In this document: one piece after another, positions 51,987 through 64,000 of the stretch | How the letters are laid out: every line of letters starts with the position of its first letter | Numbering within the stretch: position 1 is the first letter of the stretch | Assembly: GCF_000759715.1 (NCBI RefSeq) | Contig: NZ_BBLU01000005.1 | Span: forward strand, 124,001-188,000 | DNA from: Demequina mangrovi | Lineage (GTDB): Bacteria; Actinomycetota; Actinomycetes; Actinomycetales; Demequinaceae | Direction: 5' to 3' | Length of the DNA stretch: 64,000 nt | Notes under the pieces: model-generated | Databases searched by the model: none | What the model was told of the DNA's origin: nothing | What the model saw: only the letters and a program-made list of their open reading frames with translations | Translations under genes and position numbers: made by a program

Positions 51987-54900
51987 TCAGGACGATGCGT
52001 CGTACGGCTCGTCGCCGAAGCCGCACGTCGATCGCCACTCACCGAGCGGGGCGAGGTAGGCGGCCCACTCGTCCGCGGTGAGGTCACGGCCCGCGGCGGC
52101 ACACGCCGCGTCGCGCAAGGCGTCGGGATCGAGCGTCCAGATGCCGATGCCTTCCGACTCGTCCACCGCGACCTCGAGGCCGTCCTGGCGGAGCCACGCG
52201 GGCCAGGCGAGCGGCGCGTGCGAGGGGAACGGTCCTGCGATGCGCCGACCGGTGGCGGAGTCGTAGAGCATGCTGCGCTGGCCGAGGTCCGCGGTGAGGA
52301 ACACGTCGCCGTCGACGGAGAACTGGAAGCGGCCGATCTCCGCGCGCGAGCCCTCCGTGGACGCGAGGAGGTTGAGCTCGAGGTCGTAGCGGCCGATCAG
52401 CGACCCGATCTGCGCGACGACGAGGCCGTCGTCGTTGACCGCGGCCTTCTCGAGGCCGTCCACGAAGGGGGAGAGGGGCGCGCCCGTCTGCAGGTCGAAG
52501 ACCTGCGCGCCCAGGCCTCCGCCGGCGAGGTGGGAGGACACGACCACGTACCGGTCGTCGGGCGAGGTGACGATGTGCGCCGCGACGCCCTCGACGTCGA
52601 TCGTCGGGCCATCCGGCTCGCCGCTGGCGAGGTCGAAGGGCCACACCGTCCCGTCGGGGTCCGCCGCGAGCTGGCGGTCGCCGGCGTCGCTTCGGAAGTG
52701 GTGGTCGACCTCGGCGCCGATCGGGTAGGTGAGGGTCCGGCGCTGCTCGCTGAGGTCGTACCGGCCGATGTCGTCGGTGGACGGGAAGTACGCGACCACG
52801 GTGTCCTCGGACGCCCAGCTGAGGCCGTCCGCCTCGCCTGTGACGATGGTCTCGGCGGTGTCCTCCGGGATGCTCCACACCCCGTACGTGCAGGGCTCAT
52901 CCTCGCCGTGCATCTCGCAGAGGAGCAGCGCGAGCCCGTCGTCACGGTAGCCGTCCCCGACGATGTAGCCGGGTCCTGCGATCACACGGTGGATCGGACC
53001 CTTCGCGTCGAGCGCCCACCGCGTGAGGACCGGCGAACGCCAGCTGAAGGCGAGAAGCTCGGTAGAGGAGGCCACGAGCGTGCCGGCGGACCCGTGCTGC
53101 ACGTCGAACGCGCGCCCGGTGGGCCCGCCGCGGTCGAGCGTGCGCTCCTGGACCTCGCCGAACGCGCCGCCGCAGTAGAAGTTCTCCGCGGCGACGGGCA
53201 CCACCATCGTCATGCAGGCGTACATCTGCGGGTCCGGCAACGTCACCATCCATGCCGGTTCTCCGGTCGCGAGGTCGGTGAGCGCGACGTGGTTCGGGCC
53301 CGAGGTGAGCGCACGCCCATCCGCCGTGACCGCGATCCCGAGCCCGGTCGCGCTCGTCTCGACCGCCCACGACTGCAGCACCTCTCCGCTCGTCGGATCG
53401 ACCACGCTCACCGATCCCTCGGATCCGATCACGAAGGCGCCATCCGGCTCTGCGGCCACCGTGATCCTGTTGGGGGTGGGTGTGGTCACCCGTACCGAGG
53501 TGACCACACCGAGCGAGCGCGCGTCGCGGAGGTCGACGCTTGCGCGACTGTGGTCGACGGTCGCGACCACGGCGCCGGAGGCGTCGATGGCGACCTGGAG
53601 CGGGCTGTCCGAGACATCGGGGACCGTCGCAGGCTCGGAGGCCAGCACCGTGCCTCGGACGAGGTCGTACGACGTGATCCTCCCGCACGCCGCGCCGGTG
53701 TCGCAGCCGCTCGCCTGAGCGAGCACGACCGCGACCGACCCGTCGGGAGCGACCGCGACCGCACGGTCCCCTCGCGTGAGCCGCGCGTCCGCGATCCGCG
53801 TCCGTGCCTCGAGGGTGCTCGGGTCGTGGACCTCGAGGCCCGCCTGCGTGGCGACGATGATGTCGCCGGCGGCGTCGGACGCACCGGCGATCCCGGTTGC
53901 GCCGTCGGTGACGACGGACTGTACGAGGTCGGGGTGGGCGGCCGCGACGTCGAACAGCGCCGCCCGCGCGCGGGGGTCGTCAGGCCAGCGCTGCGCCAGC
54001 TCGGCGGCGATGAGTGCGGCAGCCTCGCGCGAGCTGTCGGCGAGCGTCGCGACGTCGTCCGCGAGGGTCTGCACCAGCGCATCGTCCGCCTGGCGTGAGG
54101 CGCTCCGGTGCGATGCGACCGCCATGCCGCCGAGCACGAGGGCGGCGAGCGCCGCGCCCGCGCCGACGGCGCCGAGGAATCTTGCGCGGCGGCGGGTGCG
54201 GTGGTCGCGCGCGTCGGACTCGGCAAGGGCGGCCGCCTCCTGGTCGTGTCGCTCCGCGGATGCCGCGAGGAAGTCCTGCTCGACCTCCGCGAGCGCATCC
54301 GCCGAGTCGTCCTGCCATGCGAGCGCCGCCGTCAGTCGCGAGCCGCGGTAGAGGTCGTCCGCGTGTCTTCCGCTCGCGTCCCACGCACGCGCGCTGGCGG
54401 CGAGATGCGCGACGAGCAGGTGAGTGTCGACGTCGTCGTCCAGCCACGCCGCGAGTCGGGGCCACTCGCGGGTGAGGGACTCGTGCGCGACGAGGAAGTC
54501 GTCCGCGCGCGCGACCAGCAGACGAGCGGCGACGAGCCGCGCCACGGCCTCCGTACGCGCAGGCACGGCATCGACCGCGGCGGCATCCGCGGCGTGAAGC
54601 GTGACGGCCCCGGTGGAGTCGACGGTCACGAGGCGACGCATCACCGCGTGGCACTCGTCGCGCTGCTCCGCCGTCAGGTTGCCGAACACCCTCTCCGCGG
54701 AGCGTGCGACCGCGCCCGCGAGCCCGCCGGTCGCCTCGTAGGCCTCGATGGTCAGGGTGGTGCCGTCGCGGCGCTCCCACGTGGCGGCGAGCGCGTGCGA
54801 GAGGAGCGGCAGCGCCGACTCCACACGTGAGGCGTCGTGGAGCACCACGTCCACGAGCCCGTGCTCGACCGTGAGGCCGCTGTGCACCGCGGGGCGTTCG

Positions 54901-56150
54901 ACGACGTCGCGGATCGCCGCCGCCGTCGGCGGAGCCACCAGGTGGATTCCCGCGGTGACGAGCGCGCCGATGGCCGGCTGGGCGGCGCACGCGTCGAGAT
55001 GCCGCGACTGCACCGCGATGCACACGAGCCTGCCTTCCTCGTGCGCCGACGCGAGCGCGGAGCACAACGCGCCCGCGCGGTCCGCGTCGGTCAGGGCTGC
55101 GCCGAGGTCGTCGACGATGATCGGCGCTCCGGCGGCAGCAGCCACGACGTCGACCACGCCGGCGGTCGCATCGAGCAGCACGGGCTCGGGGCCGCGGCGG
55201 CGCAGCGCCGGCACCAGGCCGGCGCGCAGGATCGACGACTTCCCGATGCCCGACGGCCCTGTCACCGTGACGAAGCCGGTGCGCTCGAGCGTGTCGAGGA
55301 CGGCGCGCACGTCGTCGTCGCGACCGAAGAAGAGCTCGGCGTCCTCGGGCTGGTACTCGGCGAGTCCCTTGTACGGGCAGTCGGGGCTCGGCGGCCGCGC
55401 CGCCGGCGCCGCGAGAAGCGACTCGTCGTGTCGCAGGATCGCCTGCTCGAGCGCGACGAGCGATGCGCCCGGATCTATGCCGAGCTCGTCCACCAGCCTC
55501 CGCTGGGCCCGGCGCACCGTGGCGAGCGCATCGGCCTGGCGCTCGCATCTGTACTGCGCGAGCGCGAGAGCGTGCCACCGTCGCTCGCGATACGGCTCGG
55601 CCGCGCACAGGCCGGAGGCGTGCTCCGCGACCGCACGGTGATCCCCGGCGGCGAGCCTCGCCTCGAGCAGATCATCCTCTGCTGCCGCGCGCAGCTCGCT
55701 GAGCCGGTCGGCCTCGTCGTGCGCCGGGGGCCACTCCTCGAGATCGGCGTAGGGTCGTCCCTCCCAGAGGGCGAGCGCCCGCTCGAGCACGGTCGCCGCG
55801 CGCGGATGCTCACGGGCTGCGCTGAGCTCTCTCGCACGCGAGATGGCCTCCTCGAACTCGTCGACGTCGACCTCGAGCGGTCCGCCGGCGCCCCGGGGGA
55901 GGATGCGGTATCCGCCGGCGACGGTCACGATCGCCGCCGCGCCGTACGCCTTGCGGAGCCGTCCGATCGAGGCCTGCAGCTGCTTGGCCCAGGTCGCCGG
56001 CGGATCCTCCCCCCACACCGCCTCGGCGAGCGCGGCGGAGCTCGCGTCCGCCGGTCGGCTCACCAGGAGCGCCTCGAGCACAGCGCGCTCCCGTGGGCTG
56101 ACTCTCGGCTCGTCCGAGACGCCCCTCCCCCCGAGGACCGCGACCCTCAC
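51987..56150 (-). CDS. BTAD - STAND NTPase - WD40 regulator (AfsR/SARP-like)
   Basis: A 1,387-residue multidomain protein. An OmpR-like winged helix (residues ~1-95, PPATWAKQLQASIGRLRKAYG) is followed by a bacterial transcriptional activation domain (~95-240). Next comes an nSTAND-type NTPase (PYKGLAEYQPEDAELFFGRD, P-loop GPSGIGKSS near 300). One membrane helix lies near 655-680, and a C-terminal repeat region to the end looks like a WD40/propeller. This implies a membrane-spanning sensor with DNA-binding and NTPase parts inside. I favour the GTG at 56150, where family members begin; ATGs at 56216 and 56237 lack ribosome sites. The target is unknown; the divergent exported-protein gene is a candidate. 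Confidence 0.85.
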   Translation of the reverse strand: MRVAVLGGRGVSDEPRVSPRERAVLEALLVSRPADASSAALAEAVWGEDPPATWAKQLQASIGRLRKAYGAAAIVTVAGGYRILPRGAGGPLEVDVDEFEEAISRARELSAAREHPRAATVLERALALWEGRPYADLEEWPPAHDEADRLSELRAAAEDDLLEARLAAGDHRAVAEHASGLCAAEPYRERRWHALALAQYRCERQADALATVRRAQRRLVDELGIDPGASLVALEQAILRHDESLLAAPAARPPSPDCPYKGLAEYQPEDAELFFGRDDDVRAVLDTLERTGFVTVTGPSGIGKSSILRAGLVPALRRRGPEPVLLDATAGVVDVVAAAAGAPIIVDDLGAALTDADRAGALCSALASAHEEGRLVCIAVQSRHLDACAAQPAIGALVTAGIHLVAPPTAAAIRDVVERPAVHSGLTVEHGLVDVVLHDASRVESALPLLSHALAATWERRDGTTLTIEAYEATGGLAGAVARSAERVFGNLTAEQRDECHAVMRRLVTVDSTGAVTLHAADAAAVDAVPARTEAVARLVAARLLVARADDFLVAHESLTREWPRLAAWLDDDVDTHLLVAHLAASARAWDASGRHADDLYRGSRLTAALAWQDDSADALAEVEQDFLAASAERHDQEAAALAESDARDHRTRRRARFLGAVGAGAALAALVLGGMAVASHRSASRQADDALVQTLADDVATLADSSREAAALIAAELAQRWPDDPRARAALFDVAAAHPDLVQSVVTDGATGIAGASDAAGDIIVATQAGLEVHDPSTLEARTRIADARLTRGDRAVAVAPDGSVAVVLAQASGCDTGAACGRITSYDLVRGTVLASEPATVPDVSDSPLQVAIDASGAVVATVDHSRASVDLRDARSLGVVTSVRVTTPTPNRITVAAEPDGAFVIGSEGSVSVVDPTSGEVLQSWAVETSATGLGIAVTADGRALTSGPNHVALTDLATGEPAWMVTLPDPQMYACMTMVVPVAAENFYCGGAFGEVQERTLDRGGPTGRAFDVQHGSAGTLVASSTELLAFSWRSPVLTRWALDAKGPIHRVIAGPGYIVGDGYRDDGLALLLCEMHGEDEPCTYGVWSIPEDTAETIVTGEADGLSWASEDTVVAYFPSTDDIGRYDLSEQRRTLTYPIGAEVDHHFRSDAGDRQLAADPDGTVWPFDLASGEPDGPTIDVEGVAAHIVTSPDDRYVVVSSHLAGGGLGAQVFDLQTGAPLSPFVDGLEKAAVNDDGLVVAQIGSLIGRYDLELNLLASTEGSRAEIGRFQFSVDGDVFLTADLGQRSMLYDSATGRRIAGPFPSHAPLAWPAWLRQDGLEVAVDESEGIGIWTLDPDALRDAACAAAGRDLTADEWAAYLAPLGEWRSTCGFGDEPYDASS

Positions 56151-56290
56151 GTCTCGAGTCTCGGCGGGAGCAGGACCCGGGTCAAGGACCAGCGCGCGAG
56201 CGGATACCGGACGCATACCGCGCCACGCGCTCTGCATACCGAGGCCATACGCGCCTCGCGTCGACTGAGGGCGACCAGAAGGAGGTCATC

Positions 56291-59597: not shown

Positions 59598-60554
59598 ATG
59601 CGGGGCTCGGGCTGGCGCGTGCGCGCGTGCGTGGTGATCGGGGCAGGTCTGGCGGCGCTGGGCGCGTGCAGCCCGGCCGTGACGTCGGAGCAGGAGTCGG
59701 CGTCGGAGTCACCCCCCGTCGCGGCGTCCTCAGCCGAGCCCGCGGTCGCGGTCGCGCCGTCGGAGACACCCACGCCGGACACGCCTGTCGTCGGCGGTCT
59801 CGAGGCGATCACGGAGTACGTCTCGGACGCCGACTGGTCGTTCGCCAACGCAGGCTGGTTCGCACCGATCCCGATCGAGATCCGCGACGGACGCGCCGAG
59901 CCCGATGTCGAGACCGTCTACTACCTCGACGAGGGGGTGGAGGTCGACATGGACGGCGACGGGCTGCTCGACGCGGTGATCCCCATCGTCGAGGAGCGCG
60001 CCTTCACCATGCAGACCCTCTGGTACGTGTGGTTGGCGCGTGAAGGGCCCGACGGCGAGACGGTCGCCGAGCAGGTGATCTACCCGGTCGCCAAGGACGT
60101 CCACTGCGGCGACCGGGTCAACTCGGTGACGGCGCTCGACGGCGCGATCCGTGTGGACGAGGTGCTCTGGGTGACGTCGGACGTCGACCTGTCCTGCGCG
60201 GACTACGGCACCGGTCTGCTGGTGAAGGACGTGGCGCTGCGGGAGATCGAGGGCGAGCTGTACCCGATCCAGATCGCGCCCGTCGTCGCCTGGGGCGGGG
60301 TCTGCCCTCAGACCCGGGTCGAGGGCTACTACCAGGGCGTCGGCATCGTCGGCATCGAGGTCCGTGCTGCGCCGCCGGCGTCGGCGCCCCTCGCGGTCGA
60401 GCCCGAGCAGAGGTTCTGGATGGGTGCGCCGGAGTATGCGGAGCTCATCGACGACGGGCTCGCGGCGATGTACGTCCCGTTCGTCACTGAGATGCCCCGA
60501 GAACCCGGTGGCGTCGAGCACTGCGGCTTCCAGAACTCCTTGATCGCTGGTTGA
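59598..60554 (+). CDS. Lipoprotein of unknown function, paralog 1
   Basis: A 318-residue lipoprotein. The lipobox is LGAC (Cys near residue 24), followed by a Ser/Pro/Glu linker to about residue 65. The body has TLWYVWLAREG, DVHCGDRVNSV and PVVAWGGVCPQ, and four scattered Cys that could pair. It is a paralog of the gene at 61162, sharing YVWL, CGDRV.SV and AWGGVCP, with the PEBP gene between them. The function is unknown. Confidence 0.75.
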   Translation: MRGSGWRVRACVVIGAGLAALGACSPAVTSEQESASESPPVAASSAEPAVAVAPSETPTPDTPVVGGLEAITEYVSDADWSFANAGWFAPIPIEIRDGRAEPDVETVYYLDEGVEVDMDGDGLLDAVIPIVEERAFTMQTLWYVWLAREGPDGETVAEQVIYPVAKDVHCGDRVNSVTALDGAIRVDEVLWVTSDVDLSCADYGTGLLVKDVALREIEGELYPIQIAPVVAWGGVCPQTRVEGYYQGVGIVGIEVRAAPPASAPLAVEPEQRFWMGAPEYAELIDDGLAAMYVPFVTEMPREPGGVEHCGFQNSLIAG

Positions 60555-61161: not shown

Positions 61162-62103
61162 ATGCGACGCTCTGCCGTGCGTGCAGGTGTGATGGTGCTG
61201 GTGGTGAGCGCGGCTACGGGGTGCGCGGGAGCCGAGGGGGACAGCGGTGAACCGACGCCTTCGGCGTCGTCGATCGCGGTCCCGGAGGGACCGACGCCCG
61301 AGGCCGACGCGCCGAGCGCGGAGACGACGCCGACCCCTGAACCGAGCCCCTCCACCCGCGAAGGCATCGCGGCGATCATGGACTGGGCGGCCGACGCCGA
61401 ATGGTCCTACGCACCCGGAGGCACGGGCATGCCGATGACGGTGCAGCTTGCCGAGGGTGCGGCGAGCGACGCGCCGGGCGGTGGTGACTTCGAGCTCGGA
61501 TGGGGCGTCGAGGCGGACGCGGATGCGGACGGCGTCCTCGATGCGGCGCTGCCCATCACGAGGGTGCTCGGCGACACCACGGAGGTGCTCTGGTACGTGT
61601 GGCTCGGAGTCGAGCACGCGGCGGAGGGCGAACCGACCGCGATCCAGGTGCCGTACCCGATCGCGCGCGACGTCGCGTGCGGCGACCGTGTGCGCTCGGT
61701 CGAGGCGACAGGTACGGGATTCCGCATCGACGAGGCGCTCCGCATGCCCTGGACCGACGCGCAGCTCGCATGCGAGGACGAGGGGTCGGGAGTTCAGCTC
61801 CGCGAGGTGGAGATCGTCGAGGTCGAGGGCGCGCGGTACCCGGTGCAGACCTCGCCGGTCGCGGCGTGGGGAGGCGTGTGCCCGCGTGCCCCCGAGCTGG
61901 ACGGATTCGAGGAGACGGGCTTCGAGCTGCGCGTCGGGCCGCCGCAGACGGCCGCGCTCGCGGTCGACCCCGCGCGGACGTTCTGGGTGTTCGCACTGGA
62001 CCCCGTGCCGCTCCTCGCCGATGGCGACCTCGCATTCCTGGGCTTCAACCAGGACATCGCGGGTGATGCTGCCGTCAAGCAGCACTGCGCGTTCTACGAC
62101 TGA
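61162..62103 (+). CDS. Lipoprotein of unknown function, paralog 2
   Basis: A 313-residue lipoprotein with lipobox TGC (Cys near residue 21) and a Pro/Thr/Glu linker to about residue 65. The body shares EVLWYVWLGVE, DVACGDRVRSVE and PVAAWGGVCP with the protein encoded at 59598. The pair probably arose by duplication around the PEBP gene. The ATG at 61162 is followed at once by a basic signal (MRRSAVRAGVM). The function is unknown. Confidence 0.75.
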   Translation: MRRSAVRAGVMVLVVSAATGCAGAEGDSGEPTPSASSIAVPEGPTPEADAPSAETTPTPEPSPSTREGIAAIMDWAADAEWSYAPGGTGMPMTVQLAEGAASDAPGGGDFELGWGVEADADADGVLDAALPITRVLGDTTEVLWYVWLGVEHAAEGEPTAIQVPYPIARDVACGDRVRSVEATGTGFRIDEALRMPWTDAQLACEDEGSGVQLREVEIVEVEGARYPVQTSPVAAWGGVCPRAPELDGFEETGFELRVGPPQTAALAVDPARTFWVFALDPVPLLADGDLAFLGFNQDIAGDAAVKQHCAFYD

Positions 62104-62113
62104 CAAGGCGGCG

Positions 62114-63148
62114 TCACACGAAGCCCGCGAAGTGCGAGGCGTCGACCCCTGACGCGATCCGGCGGCCCCAGGCGCGCAGCTCTGGGACCGCGCCGACCGC
62201 GTCGATGGTGGAGAGCGGGGTCGGCGCTTCGGCGTCGTAGCGCGTGTAGGTGAAGAGCGGCGCGGCATGGACGGGCAACCCCTCGACGGCGCCCACCTCC
62301 TCGTCGAGATCCAGGCCGTGGCGCACGGTGCTCAACGACCGGCACGCGAGGTCCTGCTGCACCGCGATCGAATGCATCAGCGACAACGGGACCTCGTTCG
62401 CGTGGTCCCAGAGCATCCGCTCCGGTGTCCCTGGCGCCACCGTCACCGGGGAGGACCCGGTGCCGACGCTCACCAGCAGCAGACGGTCGGGCCCCGTCGC
62501 CCAGCCGAGGCGGTACTCCGGCATCGTCGCCATGAGGAAGAGCTGGAACGCGGGGTTGTTGAGCGGCGTCGTGCCGCCGTCGGTGAACTCGAACGAGACG
62601 CCGTCGAGCGTGATGCGCTCCGCCGGGAAGTAGGTCGGCGCGGCGGTGCTGGCGCGGACCAGCTGCCACAGAGGTATGCGCAGGTTCGAGCTCGCGAGCG
62701 CGGGGTCGTTGAAGGCGGCTCGAGGATTGCTGCTCACCGGCCAGGGCGAGTCCGTGGTCGCGTTCCGGACGCCCACCATGAGCAGGCACCGCAGGCGCGG
62801 CGAACCCAGCAAGGTGTCGGTGCCGAGCTCCCGTTGGAGCAACGCGGTCAGGCCCCGATGGTCGTAGCGATGCCTCAGCCGGGCGAGCCCGTTCGCGCGG
62901 TGGAAGATGCGCCGAGCCTGCGATTGGTAGAGGTCCAGCACCTCATGAGCGGATCTCCCCAGCGCGAGCGCTGCCGCGATGATGGCGCCCGTGCTGGTGC
63001 CGGCGATGTAGTCGAACCAGTCGCCCAGCCTCAGGTCAGGGTCGCCCGTCTCGCGACGCAGGACCGCCTCGATCTCGACGATGGTCTCGAGCGCGACAAC
63101 CCCACGGATCCCGCCGCCGTCGATCGCGAGCAGCCTGCGACGCTCCAC
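62114..63148 (-). CDS. Patatin-like phospholipase
   Basis: A 344-residue patatin-fold hydrolase. The oxyanion loop is AIDGGGIRG (residues 8-16), the nucleophile is Ser52 in AGTSTGAII and the catalytic Asp is D190 in FTDGGTTPLNN. The layout (short N terminus, DGGGIRG, GTSTG, DGG) is that of the cytosolic patatins used as effectors in several bacterial defence systems. Housekeeping lipid turnover is also possible. It lies 6 bases downstream of the RyR-domain gene, so the two form an operon. Confidence 0.88.
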   Translation of the reverse strand: MERRRLLAIDGGGIRGVVALETIVEIEAVLRRETGDPDLRLGDWFDYIAGTSTGAIIAAALALGRSAHEVLDLYQSQARRIFHRANGLARLRHRYDHRGLTALLQRELGTDTLLGSPRLRCLLMVGVRNATTDSPWPVSSNPRAAFNDPALASSNLRIPLWQLVRASTAAPTYFPAERITLDGVSFEFTDGGTTPLNNPAFQLFLMATMPEYRLGWATGPDRLLLVSVGTGSSPVTVAPGTPERMLWDHANEVPLSLMHSIAVQQDLACRSLSTVRHGLDLDEEVGAVEGLPVHAAPLFTYTRYDAEAPTPLSTIDAVGAVPELRAWGRRIASGVDASHFAGFV

Positions 63149-63154
63149 CGGTCG

Positions 63155-63574
63155 TCAGCCGTCCGCGTCGCCGACCGCGAGGCCCACCGCAGCGAGCAGC
63201 TCCGGCAGGTCGCGCACGCGCATGAGGTCAAGCTCGCGCGTCGCATCGTCGAGCTCCCCCCACTCCACGAGGTCGGGATGTGTGCCGCGGCCCGATGCGC
63301 GCGTGAAGCGCGCCCACCGCAGGTGCTCGATCCGTCCTCCTGCCTCGACCTCCTCTGGGGTGAGCCTCGAGCGGGCACCCGGCGCCTCTCGTGGGACGAT
63401 GCGGAGGCCGAGCGCCGCGGCCAGCGTGGGCTGGAAGCGCGCCCAGGCGCGATTCGCGTCCCGCGTGTGCTCATCGAGCGCGCGCCACTCGACTGCAGCC
63501 GGAGATGCAGGTGCGGCATCGGCGAAGCGGGCGTGCGCGAGCTCCGCCAGCCGTTCCATCTGAGCCTCGTTCAC
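63155..63574 (-). CDS. Tandem RyR-domain protein
   Basis: A 139-residue protein with two copies of a RyR-like module. The first (residues ~6-58) reads LAELAHARF, VEWRALDEHTRDANRAWARF and LAAALGL. The second (residues ~85-135) has IEHLRWARF, THPDLVEWGELDDATRELDL and VRDLPELLAAVGL. The second matches the bacterial RyR repeat (H..W, HP.LV.W..L, LP.LL...G) well. Bacterial RyR domains are suspected nucleotide-ligand sensors in conflict systems. I used GTG 63574, behind GAGGGG; ATG 63559 is the alternative. Confidence 0.7.
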   Translation of the reverse strand: MNEAQMERLAELAHARFADAAPASPAAVEWRALDEHTRDANRAWARFQPTLAAALGLRIVPREAPGARSRLTPEEVEAGGRIEHLRWARFTRASGRGTHPDLVEWGELDDATRELDLMRVRDLPELLAAVGLAVGDADG

Positions 63575-63598
63575 ACCCTTCACCCCTCGTATCCGATA

Positions 63599-63614
63599 TG
63601 TGAAGATACTCACA
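63599..63614. promoter_or_regulatory. CRP/GlxR-type site in the RyR / TrkA-N promoter
   Basis: TGTGAAGATACTCACA is an exact TGTGA-N6-TCACA dyad, the consensus for CRP-family (GlxR in actinobacteria) regulators. It is centred in the 66-bp gap between the divergent RyR and membrane genes, so one bound dimer could influence both. Confidence 0.6.
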
Positions 63615-63640
63615 GCATCACGCGTAGGGGGGAAGTCGCG

Positions 63641-64000
63641 ATGCGACATCGGTTGTGGGCGCACTGGGACAGGTCCGGCTGGATCGTCATGCTGCTCGCG
63701 GTCGCCGCGGTCTACCTTCTGGGGCTCATCGGGCTCACTCGGTACGCGGATCTCGTCGGCGAGGACTGGTCGCTCGGCACCCGGCTCTATCTCGCGCTCA
63801 CGCTCTTCTTCCTCGAGAACGGAGACGCCGAAGGGGCCGTGCCCTGGGCGCTCGAAGTCGCGCGTTGGCTCGCGCCGCTGGTGCTCGCGACGGCGGCGGT
63901 CGGCACCGCGCTGACGCTCGCGAGGCGCCGTGCGGGGGAGTGGTGGTCGCGGTGGTATCGCGGTCACGTGGTGGTGGTCGGCCTGGGCGAGCGCGGGTGG
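63641..64000 (+). CDS. Membrane protein with TrkA-N-like domain, N-terminal part
   Basis: The first 120 residues of a gene cut by the right edge. Two membrane segments (about 15-36 and 74-95) flank an extracytoplasmic loop without a K+ selectivity filter (no TxGYG). A basic loop (ARRRAGEWWSRWYRGH) leads into VVVVGLGERGW, the start of a Rossmann TrkA-N/RCK-type domain. The ATG at 63641 follows AGGGGGGAAG. It is divergent from the RyR and patatin genes. Proteins with this opening sometimes end in RyR domains, which would link it to its neighbour; that part is outside the window. Confidence 0.65.
   Translation, partial: MRHRLWAHWDRSGWIVMLLAVAAVYLLGLIGLTRYADLVGEDWSLGTRLYLALTLFFLENGDAEGAVPWALEVARWLAPLVLATAAVGTALTLARRRAGEWWSRWYRGHVVVVGLGERGW

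What the first reader, a model, noticed from the sequence alone, without database searches (positions are those of the whole stretch)
62114..64000. Patatin + tandem RyR protein + membrane/TrkA-N protein around a CRP-type site
A two-gene operon (tandem RyR-domain protein, then a patatin with intact Ser52/Asp190) is divergent from a membrane protein that enters a TrkA-N-like Rossmann domain. Between them is an exact TGTGA-N6-TCACA dyad. Seen: the motifs, the 6-bp gene spacing and the site. Known: patatins act as membrane-degrading effectors in CBASS and other defence systems, and RyR domains have been proposed as nucleotide-ligand sensors in conflict systems. Inference: a sensor/effector unit that detects a nucleotide-type signal and attacks the cell's own membrane, or a stress system under CRP-family control. 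No cyclase gene is visible in the window.
Basis: partly seen in the sequence, partly recalled or inferred. Interest (0 to 1): 0.75.

Follow-up and report, generated by a model that had tools for sequence, protein, structure and literature searches.

The report
Mobile TIR cassette with RyR sensors
A bacterium carries a compact acquired gene cassette in which a predicted NAD-cutting alarm enzyme (TIR) sits beside proteins with the nucleotide-binding domain of animal calcium-release channels and beside a membrane-cutting enzyme, so it looks like an uncharacterised self-sacrifice antiviral system.

The parts
62114..63148 (-). Patatin-like phospholipase, 344 aa, Ser52/Asp190
   Evidence: Pfam 80.9 bits; catalytic residues; 61% relative in L099
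63155..63574 (-). Tandem RyR-domain protein, 139 aa (GTG start; ATG at 63559 possible); H84, W87, H99, D116 at the RyDEP ligand-contact places
   Evidence: Pfam RyR 23.8 bits; fold; residues
63641..64000 (+). Start of the 553-aa membrane/TrkA-N protein with C-terminal RyR-type repeats; it ends at equivalent window position 65302. Coupled behind it, outside the window: TIR1 (equivalent 65299-67212) and TIR2 (67209-69152 from the ATGA start)
   Evidence: L001 position + 59999 = window position
63599..63614 (.). TGTGA-N6-TCACA dyad between the divergent genes; not conserved in the relative
61162..62103 (+). Lipoprotein, 313 aa, possible travelling companion of the cassette
   Evidence: absent in 9 of 9 sister loci; 45.6% relative near the patatin of L099; lipobox-like signal
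59598..60554 (+). Related lipoprotein, 318 aa (37% identical to the previous one), before the YbhB-type gene

Best explanation
A horizontally acquired, Thoeris-like signalling cassette. Shown: gene content and order, ATGA coupling of the TrkA-RyR, TIR1 and TIR2 genes, the TIR motif Glu kept in TIR1 and lost in TIR2, an intact patatin dyad, RyR fold and ligand-place residues in the small protein, sporadic distribution, sister loci without the cassette. Inferred: TIR1 and TIR2 pair at the membrane (TIR inside, one TM segment, C-terminal part outside by the positive-inside rule). On infection or envelope disturbance TIR1 turns NAD+ into an ADP-ribose-type signal such as 2' or 3'cADPR. RyR domains bind it. 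The TrkA-N/RyR membrane protein then permeabilises the membrane like an RCK-gated channel, and/or the RyR-patatin pair starts lipid hydrolysis, ending in abortive infection. The small RyR protein keeps both residues of the RyDEP catalytic dyad, so it may instead erase the signal as an off-switch.
Confidence: 0.6

Rival explanations
1. Signal brake: the RyR-patatin gene pair is not a receptor-effector pair; the small RyR protein hydrolyses the TIR signal (glycosidase like RyDEP) to stop accidental self-killing, while the patatin senses the signal itself or another cue and TrkA-RyR is the receptor.
For: The small RyR keeps both residues matching the RyDEP dyad H75/D117 (H84/D116); TrkA-RyR has lost the Asp in repeat 2, which fits binding without cleavage; most tested phage RyDEP homologues bind without cutting, so function varies within the fold (PMC13232231).
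Against: Co-transcription with the patatin 6 bp apart is more typical of partners (inference); in patatin relatives the adjacent gene is often LSDAT, a presumed sensor.
Confidence: 0.25
2. NAD or ion homeostasis unit: TrkA-N and RyR domains respond to NAD, ATP or ADP-ribose in ordinary stress, and TIR and patatin remodel the membrane; no role against phages.
For: TrkA-N domains bind NAD-type ligands (general knowledge); RyR3 repeat12 structures hold ATP, ADP or AMP-PCP; distant TrkA-RyR relatives occur without a detected TIR.
Against: Rare and sporadic: own genome only of 396 in the order, 1 of 366 in g29; absent from nine sister loci; TIR with intact motif Glu beside a patatin is a conflict-type combination.
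Confidence: 0.12
3. CRP-controlled stress operon as in the second half of the first reader's inference.
For: Exact dyad at 63599-63614, and 8 exact sites in the genome against 0 for the reversed control.
Against: No such dyad in the corresponding intergene of L099; sporadic presence. Local control in this one strain is not excluded.
Confidence: 0.05
4. Chance neighbours: two unrelated islands, a patatin-RyR pair and a TrkA-TIR operon, that happen to abut.
For: Divergent orientation, no shared operon; distant relatives of each half occur apart.
Against: Same five genes, order and orientation in another family; 8 of 10 contig-length pairs; both halves carry RyR repeats.
Confidence: 0.04

Closest known systems
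Thoeris (ThsB TIR + ThsA effector)
   Same: TIR signal maker next to a putative nucleotide-sensing effector; TIR1 is just over the ThsB_TIR cut-off
   Different: no SIR2, SLOG or macro domain found in the five cassette proteins; sensors are RyR domains, candidate effectors a patatin and a TrkA-N membrane protein; TIRs are TM-anchored and paired intact/degenerate
RyDEP, phage RyR-domain defence evasion protein (PMC13232231, 2026 preprint; abstract and parts 1-2 of 6 read)
   Same: same fold family and, by spacing, the same ligand-contact residues; RyDEP acts on 2'/3'cADPR
   Different: RyDEP is a viral countermeasure; here the RyR genes lie in a host cassette beside the TIR
CBASS with patatin effector (CapV type, name recalled)
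   Same: patatin matches PADLOC phospholipase effectors (135.8 bits)
   Different: under the NCBIfam CBASS_lipase cut-off (105.5 against 200); no SMODS match in the genome
Nucleotide-centric conflict networks with SLOG/LSDAT, SLATT, TIR, RyR (Burroughs et al. 2015, recalled; not held)
   Same: patatin relatives have one or more TIR, LSDAT/SLOG, SLATT, NDT-TPR or RyR genes within 7 kb in 65 of 80 loci
   Different: here RyR stands where LSDAT stands in several relatives, and a TrkA-RyR membrane protein is added; how much of this that paper predicted I could not check
Swarozyc / DUF4062 TIR-like NADases (PMC13174449; abstract, outline and passages seen)
   Same: a DUF4062-NACHT-WD40 protein adjoins a RyR gene in L122
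   Different: not part of the window's cassette; the paper's main text has no hit for RyR, ryanodine, patatin or TrkA

Membership tests
RyR domain (PF02026), small protein | profile score over the curated cut-off | tested here: inconclusive
   23.8 bits, E 5.3e-5, cut-off 27.4
RyR domain (PF02026), small protein | RyR repeat fold | tested here: met
RyR domain (PF02026), small protein | ligand-contact residues H-x2-W, H, D as reported for RyDEP | tested here: met
   H84, W87, H99, D116 by sequence spacing; also in L099 and P0138; L018 has 3 of the 4
Thoeris | TIR protein with the catalytic Glu | tested here: met
   TIR_2 41.0 bits, ThsB_TIR 21.7 bits; SDWVGKE. Against: NCBIfam ThcB4 26.4 bits, cut-off 220
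Thoeris | adjacent ThsA-type effector (SIR2-SLOG or macro) | tested here: not met
   no such Pfam domain in the five cassette proteins
Thoeris | TIR-made ADP-ribose signal activates the effector | not testable with these tools
   needs biochemistry
CBASS | CD-NTase (SMODS) gene | tested here: not met
   PF18144: 0 matches in the own genome; control rings in 3 of 14, 2 over cut-off; other CD-NTase families not tested
CBASS | patatin over the NCBIfam CBASS_lipase cut-off | tested here: not met
   105.5 against 200 bits
TrkA-N/RCK protein | TrkA_N domain | tested here: met
   47.3 bits, cut-off 23.8
Potassium channel | GYG-type selectivity filter between the TM segments | tested here: not met
   hydrophobic segments 15-33 and 76-94; no GYG between them in the sequence, by eye
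Patatin | GXSXG Ser and DGG/DGA Asp | tested here: met
   Ser52, Asp190, 80.9 bits

The most novel reading that the evidence does not exclude
A bacterial TIR-to-RyR immune axis: transmembrane TIR receptors (one active, one pseudo-enzyme) make a cyclic ADP-ribose that is read by RyR domains on an RCK-type membrane protein and beside a patatin. This would be the prokaryotic counterpart of the proposed cADPR-ryanodine-receptor signalling of animals, would give host RyR domains a native role, and would explain why phages carry RyR proteins that bind or cut the signal.
Probability: 0.3. Interest if true: 0.9.

Novelty: new variant of a known kind. Interest (0 to 1): 0.72.

Why it matters
A 2026 preprint shows that phage RyR proteins bind or cut TIR-made cADPR signals and suggests studying whether animal RyR repeat12 domains meet such signals (PMC13232231). 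A compact host cassette that pairs a TIR with RyR domains makes that question directly testable in bacteria, would add a TIR pathway with lipase and channel-like outputs, and places two sensor modules known from animal calcium channels (LSDAT of TRPM, RyR of ryanodine receptors) beside the same kinds of patatin and TIR genes.

Tried and rejected
CRP regulation as a defining feature: rejected. CBASS membership: rejected. Housekeeping or stress locus: rejected on distribution and sister loci. Plasmid or viral carriage: none found (tblastn of P0121 in plasmids; alignment scan of viral contigs: 46 pattern stretches, none confirmed); phages and E. coli collections were not searched with the TrkA-RyR protein. 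Weak small-RyR matches to toxin chains (E 0.09-0.13; NCBIfam 11.7 bits against 736) were judged chance and not followed. A sixth gene after TIR2: the 66-aa reading frame has no convincing match in L099 (best E 0.62) nor in plasmids. In one search my query for the second lipoprotein was out of frame; it was redone, whose result is used. Literature: eight answered searches listed no host RyR-TIR-patatin system; PMC8195603, PMC7159879 and PMC9503650 were only searched for terms. Burroughs et al. 2015 is not held, so earlier prediction of parts of this theme cannot be excluded. RyDEP itself is not among the fold rows shown (library to April 2026), which shows nothing either way. A fold of the TrkA-RyR protein could not be made, and only one of three fold-search libraries answered.

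Counting rules: the 80 patatin loci are the best 80 of 115 confirmed, 39-51% identical in the best segment. Neighbour families were found by homology to hand-picked seeds within 7 kb in stop-to-stop reading frames, so misses are likely (the TIR-STAND gene of L018 was one), and one gene can ring for both TIR seeds. The earlier clustering gave other counts because it included antisense frames; it is not used. In the 15 RyR loci, L120, L121 and L126 lie on contigs of 3.5, 6.0 and 9.5 kb; L120, L121, L123, L126, L127 and L129 gave no TIR by seeds and most of their neighbours were not Pfam-scanned; L124 and L125 were called DUF4062 by likeness to L122, which was scanned. Four of the 15 come from one genus (g190) and three from one family (f28). 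My RyR profile was built with the window's own proteins among others, so its hits on them are circular and are not used as evidence.

Full report
What is there. The window is G000:C29:124001-188000 of a 2.97 Mb assembly. The right-hand continuation was fetched as L001 (window position = L001 position + 59999). On the minus strand lie a 139-aa RyR protein (63574-63155) and, 6 bp further, a 344-aa patatin (63148-62114) with Ser52 and Asp190. Divergent from them starts a 553-aa membrane protein at 63641. It has hydrophobic segments at 15-33 and 76-94, a TrkA_N domain (47.3 bits), and two C-terminal RyR-type repeats. Pfam does not score these repeats in it or in its close homologues, but does in distant homologues P0132-P0135 and L061, and the small RyR protein hits the C-terminus of the L099 homologue at E 3e-5. 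Its stop overlaps by ATGA the start of TIR1 (637 aa; TIR_2 41.0 bits, ThsB_TIR 21.7 bits), whose stop overlaps by ATGA a start of TIR2. TIR1 keeps the Glu of the S-x-W-V-x-x-E motif; TIR2 has lost it, in this species and in the relative. That this Glu is catalytic is general knowledge of TIR NADases. Both TIR proteins have one strong hydrophobic segment after the TIR domain with 4 or 5 basic residues in the 12 before it, so by the positive-inside rule the TIR is cytoplasmic and the C-terminal half outside (inference).

Conservation. Among the 10 close TrkA-RyR homologues P0122-P0131, 8 sit on contigs whose length equals that of a contig holding one of the best patatin homologues, five of these contigs being 4.6 to 12.5 kb long; the two misses are on contigs of 3.1 and 2.1 kb. 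Contig-length equality is indirect evidence, but the lengths are distinctive. The cassette is rare: only the own genome among 396 of the order, 0 of 150 in the family of G102, 1 of 366 in g29. Among 59 relatives, 20 including the own genome had some match, but only the own one is full length; the others cover TrkA-N only, at 35 bits or less.

Acquisition. In nine loci of sister genomes (L134-L142) the five genes are absent by tblastn at E 1e-8. The flanking genes (called YbhB-type and alpha/beta hydrolase from recalled likeness) lie 108 and 100 bp apart in the two nearest genomes (aminotransferase 96% and 95% identical), within 0.31 kb in 8 of 9 (in L139 only part of the hydrolase aligns), and 1.35 kb apart in L142, against 8.3 kb in the window's genome. 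Two lipoprotein genes at 59598-60554 and 61162-62103 (37% identical to each other) are also missing from all nine, and a 45.6% relative of the second lies about 1.2 kb beyond the patatin in L099, in another orientation, so a lipoprotein may travel with the cassette. G+C of the cassette (0.715-0.735) equals the window's 0.722.

Wider context. Around 80 patatin relatives (39-51% identity, best 80 of 115) seeds found a TIR gene within 7 kb in 34, an NDT-like/TPR gene in 42, LSDAT in 13, SLATT in 7, another SLOG-like family in 7 and RyR in 2; 15 had none of these (own locus left out). L061 pairs a patatin with a divergent TrkA-RyR gene and LSDAT; L018 has a RyR protein (62.6 bits), a TM-Rossmann protein with a sub-threshold RyR match, patatin, LSDAT and a TIR protein. 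In cyanobacterial loci L005, L007, L015 and L025 the patatin has LSDAT upstream and TIR downstream: LSDAT there takes a place like that of RyR here. Starting from RyR instead, 14 of 296 genomes of the phylum have PF02026, at 15 loci. A TIR_2 protein over the cut-off lies within about 3 kb in six (L119, L128, L130-L133), and a DUF4062 protein adjoins three related ones; six loci showed none. For scale, 37 of 119 order genomes have any TIR_2 match at all.

Against this stands the class-wide search with the TrkA-RyR profile: 15 of 394 genomes, the own one and 14 distant relatives. Of these 14 only L158 showed a TIR by my seeds, L166 has a neighbour that reads like a TIR-STAND protein but was not scanned, and 11, all in one family, showed none. 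So the TrkA-RyR architecture also exists outside TIR neighbourhoods.

How it most likely works. TIR1, with TIR2 as a non-catalytic partner, senses infection or envelope damage and makes an ADP-ribose-type signal; RyR domains read it; the patatin and the TrkA-RyR protein act on the membrane. The order of events, the signal and the trigger are inference. The weakest points are the channel role (no selectivity-filter motif) and whether the small RyR activates the patatin or destroys the signal.

Comparison and novelty. It works like Thoeris but no ThsA-type domain was found in its five proteins, and it is not CBASS by the two features tested. Eight answered searches of the held library listed no host RyR-TIR-patatin system. 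Burroughs et al. 2015, which I recall as having predicted related nucleotide-centric networks, could not be read. I therefore file it as a new variant of a known kind.

Noticed in passing
window 51987-56237 (-): 1416-aa protein with BTAD regulator domain and nSTAND1 NTPase, about 6 kb from the cassette; possibly another conflict-type or regulatory STAND protein.
   Followed up: partly
window 59598-60554 and 61162-62103: Two related lipoproteins with acidic D-x-D-G-type loops (by eye) flank a YbhB-type gene; absent in nine sister loci, one relative near the L099 cassette. Possible extracytoplasmic partner of the TIR proteins.
   Followed up: partly
L001:9156-9356 (right of the window): 66-aa reading frame after TIR2 that looks like the start of a longer gene cut at the insertion edge; no match found.
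   Followed up: partly
L099:3538-3614: tRNA-Pro (ggg) about 2 kb beyond TIR2 in the M. soli-type genome, with an integrase-like reading frame by eye, as if the cassette sits in an island there.
   Followed up: partly
L119 (G1093): RyR gene beside a TIR protein (57.2 bits) and a NUDIX gene (63.6 bits): a second, different ADP-ribose-flavoured RyR neighbourhood.
   Followed up: no
L122, L124, L125: A 581-aa RyR protein beside a 1400-aa protein with DUF4062, NACHT-like and WD40 domains (only L122 scanned); DUF4062 was reported in 2026 as a TIR-like NADase (PMC13174449, abstract).
   Followed up: partly
G000, eight places: Exact TGTGA-N6-TCACA sites: 8 in the genome against 0 for the reversed control.
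   Followed up: no
L001:17242-17802: Reading frame without Pfam match, absent from the nine sister loci, next to a gene that six of the nine keep; perhaps a second small insertion.
   Followed up: no
L157-L170 (class-wide TrkA-RyR relatives): One large-genome family (f101) carries TrkA-RyR genes in 11 of the 14 relatives found, without a detected TIR: a possible different role for the same architecture.
   Followed up: partly
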